From contig CM049317.1 of NCBI GenBank assembly GCA_026874595.1, positions 37,666,401 to 37,730,400 on the forward strand: DNA of 64,000 nucleotides. Reading direction: 5' to 3'. The first letter of the stretch is position 1. The number at the start of each line of letters is the position of its first letter. The notes beneath the pieces are model-generated. The model saw nothing but the letters and a program-made list of their open reading frames with translations. It was not told the origin of the DNA and ran no database searches. This document shows positions 26,618 through 59,435 of this stretch, piece after piece. The translations under genes were made by a program, and so were the position numbers. The DNA comes from Sipunculus nudus. Lineage: Eukaryota > Annelida > Sipuncula > Golfingiida > Sipunculidae.

Positions 26618-26696
26618 ATGGATATATTTAAATGTCCCCGGTGGAGTGTGTGGCGGCTGGCTCTGGCCTGTGTACTGTGTACTGCATGGGGGAATG
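26618..26696 (+). CDS. Gene 2 exon 1: start codon and signal peptide
   Basis: The ATG at 26618 opens [20 protein letters not shown], followed by CTAWGNG. A basic/aromatic N-region, a hydrophobic core and small residues before the end fit a cleavable signal peptide. The donor G|GTAAGG at 26697 leaves phase 1, which matches the phase-1 acceptor of the first CTLD exon. Assignment to this gene is inferred from strand, phase and the absence of any other candidate leader exon that I can see. Confidence 0.55.

Positions 26697-59435: not shown

What the first reader, a model, noticed from the sequence alone, without database searches (positions are those of the whole stretch)
26618..59435. Membrane-anchored lectin-NACHT-LRR receptor: NLR signalling module fused across a membrane to two C-type lectin domains
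Seen: ten GT-AG exons with consistent phases encode signal peptide, CTLD1, CTLD2, S/T/P stalk, TM helix with RRR stop-transfer, pre-NACHT exon, and one large NACHT-LRR exon ([31 protein letters not shown]-type LRRs). Known: textbook NLRs are cytosolic, and CTLD receptors usually signal through ITAM-like tails or adaptors. Inference: this protein would couple extracellular recognition directly to a STAND oligomerisation platform, an architecture I do not know as a characterised receptor class.
Basis: partly seen in the sequence, partly recalled or inferred. Interest (0 to 1): 0.88.

Follow-up and report, generated by a model that had tools for sequence, protein, structure and literature searches.

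The report
Lectin-fronted membrane NOD-like receptor family
This animal gene encodes what looks like a cell-surface receptor with two lectin-like domains outside the cell and a NOD-like immune-receptor engine inside it, and the same design recurs many times in the genome, so it looks like a real and largely undescribed receptor family.

Summary
Ten GT-AG exons at 26618-59435 give a 1111-aa predicted type I membrane protein: signal peptide, two C-type-lectin-like domains (CTLDs), stalk, one TM helix, pre-NACHT segment, NACHT-LRR. It recurs: an upstream tandem paralog and four genes on two other contigs have the same order, although those four were picked for a visible TM. Genome-wide, 50 of 190 CTLD2-like exons have a NACHT-family exon within 5 kb downstream on the same strand, against 0 in each of three control placements. 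Ectodomain and NACHT divergence correlate over six genes, and both halves show dN/dS near 0.1 in one pair.

Most likely these are surface receptors in which extracellular binding clusters a membrane-held NACHT platform. Fusion is well supported by sequence; signalling is inferred. No death-fold effector domain was found, and canonical sugar-binding residues are missing.

Closest precedent is sea-cucumber AjNLRC4 (Ig-TM-NACHT, no LRR). Seven full-text searches on this question showed no CTLD-TM-NACHT-LRR protein. I rate it a new variant of a known kind. Also suggestive: 9 of 12 head-to-head CTLD pairs join a NACHT-bearing to a NACHT-less gene.

The parts
26618..26696 (+). Copy 2 exon 1: start codon and predicted signal peptide ([26 protein letters not shown])
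   Evidence: ORF plus GT donor; no convincing paralog homologue; TATAAA at 26507
43336..43542 (+). Copy 2 exon 2: CTLD1, first half
   Evidence: aligned with 5 paralogs, C1, C13, C14, W43, W52, W54 invariant
45440..45550 (+). Copy 2 exon 3: CTLD1, second half
51985..52230 (+). Copy 2 exon 4: CTLD2, first half
   Evidence: Lectin_C 160-258; alignment A1
53605..53745 (+). Copy 2 exon 5: CTLD2, second half
54691..54783 (+). Copy 2 exon 6: S/T/P stalk
   Evidence: 13 of 31 residues S/T/P
55921..56021 (+). Copy 2 exon 7: transmembrane helix and RRR
   Evidence: best 19-mer mean hydropathy 2.74
56618..56678 (+). Copy 2 exon 8: short juxtamembrane exon
56874..57079 (+). Copy 2 exon 9: conserved pre-NACHT segment
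   Evidence: 143 matching places genome-wide at E<=10, its own included
57345..59435 (+). Copy 2 exon 10: NACHT, winged-helix/HD2-like region and LRRs, stop
   Evidence: NACHT E 8.2e-18; PDB profile matches 5irm (unnamed there; NOD2 from recall), NLRC4, NLRP3
191..297 (+). Copy 1 (upstream tandem paralog) TM exon; its CTLD exons lie left of the window in L039 (C12:37656401-37666400)
   Evidence: read; splice sites and phase; CTLD1/CTLD2 in L039, Lectin_C over cut-off for both
427..487 (+). Copy 1 juxtamembrane exon
1269..1471 (+). Copy 1 pre-NACHT exon (acceptor read by eye; the script picked an inner AG)
4319..6430 (+). Copy 1 NACHT-LRR exon
   Evidence: ORF; acceptor; 41% identical to copy 2; NACHT E 9e-14

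Best explanation
The locus encodes one spliced type I membrane receptor of a multigene family: signal peptide, CTLD1, CTLD2, stalk, one TM helix, short juxtamembrane stretch, pre-NACHT segment, NACHT and LRR. Supported by sequence: the exons, their order, recurrence in six genes read and some fifty other places by co-location, conserved ATPase residues, and joint purifying selection on both halves in one pair. Inferred: the CTLDs bind a microbial or cellular ligand at the surface or in a phagosome. Clustering in the membrane plane then brings the NACHT modules together, and ATP-driven NACHT oligomerisation builds a membrane-attached signalling or phagocytic platform. Because no CARD, PYD or death domain was found, output most likely comes from recruiting partners (other NACHT proteins or cytoskeletal proteins, as proposed for AjNLRC4) rather than from its own effector domain.
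For: Gene model and Pfam domains. Same exon order in copy 1 and four further genes on C17 and C7. TM segment followed by basic residues in 6 of 6 genes read, four of them picked for a visible TM. Genome-wide, within 5 kb: 50 of 190 CTLD2-type exons have NACHT-family exons downstream on the same strand, 0 upstream, 0 on the opposite strand either side. CTLD1+CTLD2+pre-NACHT chain at 38 of 190 places, all four exon types at 18. Divergence of ectodomain exons and NACHT correlates over six genes, r 0.83-0.88 for CTLD1a, CTLD2a and CTLD2b against NACHT. dN/dS about 0.13, 0.10, 0.09 and 0.12 for CTLD2a, CTLD2b, pre-NACHT and NACHT in one pair. Walker A and winged-helix histidine invariant in 27 aligned copies (3 of the 30 loci left out for a stop). 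CTLD2 matches L-selectin and mannose receptor in the PDB, best E 2.4e-6. Precedent for ectodomain-TM-NACHT: AjNLRC4.
Against: No transcript or protein data. Exon 1 rests on one gene. TM exons were checked only in the six genes read. The Mantel result leans on one close pair (C17:21.85M and C17:1.94M). No effector domain was found, so the signalling step is guesswork. The sugar-binding motif is absent, so the ligand class is open. An ATG just before the NACHT exon (57315, inside the intron) could in principle start a soluble NACHT-LRR product.
Confidence: 0.6

Rival explanations
1. Two adjacent genes misjoined: a dual-CTLD membrane receptor upstream and a cytosolic NACHT-LRR gene downstream, each with its own promoter.
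For: CTLD genes with a TM-like exon and no NACHT in the stretch read do exist in this genome (L047, L048, L050, L133, L134, by eye). 129 of 190 CTLD2 places have no listed NACHT downstream (the lists are capped). In-frame ATG codons lie close before the NACHT in both window copies.
Against: 50/0/0/0 order and strand bias. A TM exon sits between CTLD2 and pre-NACHT in 6 of 6 genes read. Divergence of the two halves is correlated. The distance from CTLD2 to the next NACHT-family hit is 1.3-4.8 kb in 50 of the 64 places that have one within 20 kb.
Confidence: 0.08
2. Dual sensor: the ectodomain mainly delivers or localises the protein (surface, phagosome), while the LRR senses a cytosolic ligand, so the NLR works classically but tethered.
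For: LRRs are kept in the window copies, unlike AjNLRC4, reported to lack them. The NACHT is nearest in sequence to cytosolic NLRs among solved structures.
Against: The ectodomain is under purifying selection in one pair and conserved as two CTLDs in six genes, more than a mere anchor would need.
Confidence: 0.25
3. Proteolytic release: ligand binding triggers cleavage at the stalk/TM and a soluble NACHT-LRR acts in cytosol or nucleus, Notch-like.
For: An S/T/P-rich stalk and a short linker between TM and pre-NACHT segment.
Against: No known cleavage domain was found by Pfam; nothing specific points to it.
Confidence: 0.07

Closest known systems
AjNLRC4, sea cucumber (PMC8699970; passages read)
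   Same: Extracellular immune-type domains, TM, intracellular NACHT; reported to sit in the membrane, bind microbes and oligomerise
   Different: Ig domains instead of CTLDs; reported to lack LRR and CARD; a second TM after the NACHT
AjNLR-new, sea cucumber (PMC13133943; passages read)
   Same: Membrane protein joining NACHT, TM and an ectodomain-type domain
   Different: Ig rather than CTLD; reported with the NACHT outside the cell
Anthozoan and sponge TM-bearing NLRs (PMC5094078, PMC12909245; passages read)
   Same: NACHT proteins with TM helices; expanded NLR repertoires
   Different: Anthozoan ones have 3-5 N-terminal TM helices; no CTLD ectodomain was mentioned in the passages read
Bacterial DGR-diversified CLec-STAND targets (PMC10907252; passages read)
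   Same: C-type-lectin fold joined to a NACHT/STAND NTPase as putative antigen sensor
   Different: The CLec domain carries the hypermutated repeat; no type I receptor of this order in the passages read; independent origin likely (inference)
Animal NLRs such as NOD2, NLRC4, NLRP3 (PDB profile hits)
   Same: NACHT core and RI-type LRRs
   Different: Those are cytosolic with CARD/PYD (recalled); here signal peptide, CTLDs and TM occupy the N-terminus
Pearl oyster NACHT repertoire, more than 200 genes (PMC9646362; passages read)
   Same: Large clustered NACHT expansion in an invertebrate
   Different: Reported N-terminal partners are death and HEPN domains; 'lectin' counts 0 in the main text

Membership tests
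Animal NLR (NACHT-LRR) | NACHT NTPase with Walker A and conserved winged-helix histidine | tested here: met
   NACHT E 2.3e-17; G13, G16, G18, K19, T21, P202, H315 invariant in 27 aligned copies; motif names recalled
Animal NLR (NACHT-LRR) | C-terminal LRRs | tested here: met
   A4 profile matches ribonuclease inhibitor and NLR LRR regions in the PDB, e.g. 4per whole-sequence E 1.4e-13; Pfam LRR models below cut-off
Animal NLR (NACHT-LRR) | N-terminal CARD, PYD, BIR or death-fold effector domain | tested here: not met
   No such Pfam hit at E<=1 in the 1111 aa
Animal NLR (NACHT-LRR) | Cytosolic location | tested here: not met
   Predicted signal peptide (by eye) and a TM helix; prediction only
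C-type-lectin receptor | CTLD fold | tested here: met
   Lectin_C over cut-off for the whole chain and for 8 of 9 separate CTLDs scanned; the ninth, copy 2 CTLD1, has 21.7 of 22.6 bits
C-type-lectin receptor | EPN/QPD plus WND calcium/sugar site (motifs recalled) | tested here: not met
   By eye in six CTLD2b segments (typed): WND replaced, e.g. WRAVNC, WRAVPC, in 6 of 6; EP followed by S, A or V in 5 of 6
C-type-lectin receptor | ITAM-like tyrosine motif in the tail (YxxL, recalled) | tested here: not met
   By eye in the juxtamembrane exons of copies 1 and 2: none in 2 of 2; the other four genes not looked at
AjNLRC4-type membrane NLR | Extracellular domain, TM, intracellular NACHT | tested here: met
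   Predicted topology; orientation not measured
AjNLRC4-type membrane NLR | Ig ectodomain and no LRR | tested here: not met
   CTLDs and LRRs instead
FISNA-type pre-NACHT segment | Pfam FISNA match | tested here: inconclusive
   2 of 15 pre-NACHT exons match, best E 0.005, copy 2 none; no relevant PDB match

The most novel reading that the evidence does not exclude
A whole arm of surface immunity: about fifty or more membrane lectin-NLRs that seed NACHT oligomers at the plasma membrane from outside. Several stand head to head with NACHT-less CTLD receptors, forming co-regulated long-tail/short-tail pairs comparable in logic to paired receptors or plant NLR pairs.
Probability: 0.25. Interest if true: 0.9.

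Novelty: new variant of a known kind. Interest (0 to 1): 0.73.

Why it matters
NLRs are the standard example of cytosolic sensors. A large family that puts the NACHT-LRR engine behind an extracellular lectin-type ectodomain would mean an animal lineage rewired NLRs into surface receptors, with ectodomain and NACHT evolving together. It gives a direct test of whether NACHT oligomerisation can be driven from outside the cell, and a testable candidate for how an invertebrate with many lectin-type domains turns recognition into signal.

Tried and rejected
Pre-NACHT exon as FISNA: it looks similar by eye, but Pfam gives 2 of 15 weak hits and the PDB nothing relevant; left open.

CARD in the nearest TM-less relatives on C3 (L041, L042): a shared upstream exon looked CARD-like by eye, but Pfam found nothing relevant; not claimed. 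A helper role for those relatives is therefore only an idea.

Structure prediction: switched off, so no fold comparison was made.

Against my reading: copy 2's own CTLD2 exon was not in the hit lists, so the survey misses divergent members and also cannot prove absence. In one search two of 31 exons (both in the C17:1.94M gene) lacked a donor in the expected phase, some picked sites are not at the homologous place, and AG/GT are common, so that test is weak. The Mantel test leans on one close pair. CTLD1a dS could not be computed.

Rows dropped before counting: 1 of 99 rows and 12 of 75 rows (second fragments of one frame, and the window's own row); all listed rows were used. Dropped before alignment A4: L012, L029 and L033, for a stop in the match.

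Corrections made on checking this report against the calls: 'chromosomes' became contigs; the cobiont COX1 genes are said to score alike, not to be near-identical (identity was not measured); decoy donors are given as counted; one of the eight literature searches was on FISNA, not on this architecture.

Full report
What is there. The window lies at C12:37666401-37730400 of a 1.43-Gb assembly of an unnamed animal. Pfam finds NACHT (425-588, E 2.3e-17) and Lectin_C (two stretches, best 160-258, E 8.1e-14). The best hydropathy segment is the single TM helix, followed by RRR; the signal-peptide core is weaker. The last exon alone is NACHT-LRR, and a profile of 27 copies in this genome matches 5irm (unnamed there; NOD2 from recall), NLRC4 and NLRP3 in the PDB, plus ribonuclease inhibitor over the LRR part. 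Walker A residues and the winged-helix histidine are invariant in those 27. CTLD2 matches L-selectin (E 2.4e-6) and mannose receptors; CTLD1 only weakly matches an NK-type CTLD (E about 0.007).

It recurs. Window 191-6430 holds the 3' part of a tandem paralog (41% identical NACHT exon) with TM, juxtamembrane, pre-NACHT and NACHT exons in the same order. Its CTLD1 and CTLD2 exons lie just left of the window in L039, and both pass the Lectin_C cut-off. Four further genes whose upstream DNA was fetched, at C17:19.82M, C17:21.85M, C17:1.94M and C7:18.81M, show the same order. These four were chosen because a TM-like exon was seen near the NACHT, so they are not a random sample. In all six genes read a strongly hydrophobic segment followed by basic residues sits between CTLD2 and the pre-NACHT exon (best 19-residue mean 2.36-3.27). 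Splice acceptors in the expected phase exist for 31 of 31 anchor exons in the five other genes and donors for 29 of 31; this is a weak test because AG and GT are common and some picks are not at the homologous place.

Genome-wide. Two CTLD2 exons used as queries gave 150 listed rows each (only 150 candidates are scored), 190 distinct places. Within 5 kb, 50 have a pre-NACHT or NACHT hit downstream on the same strand; 0 have one upstream, and 0 have one on the opposite strand on either side. Within 10 kb the numbers are 58 same-strand downstream, 3 same-strand upstream, 0 opposite downstream and 8 opposite upstream; the last 8 probably reflect head-to-head neighbours. Thirty-eight places have CTLD1, CTLD2 and pre-NACHT hits in order, 18 have all four exon types, and 50 of 143 pre-NACHT places have a CTLD2 hit within 10 kb upstream. 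These are lower bounds; window copy 2 itself is missed by the CTLD2 queries. TM exons were checked only in the six genes read.

The halves travel together. Over six genes, identity matrices of CTLD1a, CTLD2a, CTLD2b, pre-NACHT and NACHT correlate in all 10 comparisons (r 0.63-0.88; permutation p at most 0.053, 9 of 10 under 0.05). The signal leans on one close pair. In that pair (C17:21.85M and C17:1.94M) dN/dS is about 0.13 (CTLD2a), 0.10 (CTLD2b), 0.09 (pre-NACHT) and 0.12 (NACHT); dS is above 1.4 in each, and for CTLD1a it could not be computed. So both halves stayed coding and constrained over a long time in the same order.

Not every relative has it. Three NACHT relatives on C3 with the pre-NACHT exon (one of them, L012, has a stop in its NACHT match) have no CTLD2 hit within 20 kb in the lists, and no TM that I judged convincing in the 8 kb upstream (of L040 only the hydropathy scan was made). 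Conversely, 129 of 190 CTLD2 places have no listed NACHT downstream. Of six such stretches opened, five show a TM-like exon and no NACHT in the DNA held (L047, L048, L050, L133, L134; by eye) and L049 stayed unclear. So a CTLD receptor family seems to exist in long-tailed (NACHT) and short-tailed forms.

Head-to-head pairs. Among neighbouring CTLD2 places within 15 kb, 12 pairs are divergent, 4 convergent and 15 tandem; 9 of the 12 divergent pairs join one NACHT-bearing and one NACHT-less gene and none joins two NACHT-bearing ones (label-shuffle p 0.026). This is suggestive, not proven; 'NACHT-less' means no listed hit within 12 kb.

Mechanism. Sequence supports a type I receptor with extracellular CTLDs and a cytosolic STAND module. 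Inferred: ligand clustering drives NACHT oligomerisation at the membrane. No effector domain is detected between TM and NACHT, no YxxL motif in the two juxtamembrane exons looked at, and the WND part of the classical sugar site is gone in 6 of 6 CTLD2b segments (by eye, motifs recalled). The ligand need not be a sugar, and the output probably runs through partners.

Prior art. In eight full-text searches (on this question and 63 on FISNA), with passages of 12 papers read and other papers seen only as listings, I found no CTLD-TM-NACHT-LRR protein. The nearest are AjNLRC4 (Ig-TM-NACHT), AjNLR-new, TM-bearing anthozoan and sponge NLRs and bacterial CLec-STAND sensors. The library misses most subscription papers, supplements were not read, and no eukaryotic protein database could be searched, so the family may be annotated elsewhere.

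Noticed in passing
window 29229-36992: A BEL/Pao-like LTR retrotransposon sits in intron 1 of the gene: LTRs of about 703 bp with 1 mismatch over the 705 bp compared, apparent 5-bp target repeat ATAAC (by eye), long gag-pol frames. A recent insertion; the clade name is from recall.
   Followed up: partly
window 1443-3685: A 52-bp tandem array of about 44 copies in the copy 1 intron starts from the end of the pre-NACHT exon and its splice donor; a donor-like pattern from the exon end was counted 14 times, so it carries many decoy donors.
   Followed up: partly
window 11918-25366: Large 88-bp-unit minisatellite with higher-order periods (175, 263) filling much of the space between the two receptor genes.
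   Followed up: no
C17:1.947/1.952M, C17:1.981/1.987M, C12:63.937/63.941M, C6:28.213/28.221M, C17:2.492/2.499M, C17:5.847/5.851M, C17:5.883/5.888M, C17:19.813/19.817M, C17:21.842/21.851M: Nine head-to-head pairs of a CTLD-NACHT gene and a CTLD gene without a listed NACHT; 9 of 12 divergent pairs are of this mixed kind. The partner in L133 shows two CTLD1-CTLD2 sets by eye.
   Followed up: partly
contigs C60, C61, C62, C66, C72, C74, C75, C89 of G000 (L051, L052): The assembly holds contigs with similarly scoring bacterial-type COX1 genes; for L051 the nearest named match is 59% to an Oligoflexia MAG: probably a cobiont or symbiont of the host.
   Followed up: partly
contig C17 of G000: 38 of the 61 CTLD2 places with a NACHT-family hit downstream lie on this one contig, which also carries many other NACHT hits.
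   Followed up: partly
window 41694-42535: Reverse-transcriptase-like frames in intron 1, probably a LINE remnant (by eye).
   Followed up: no
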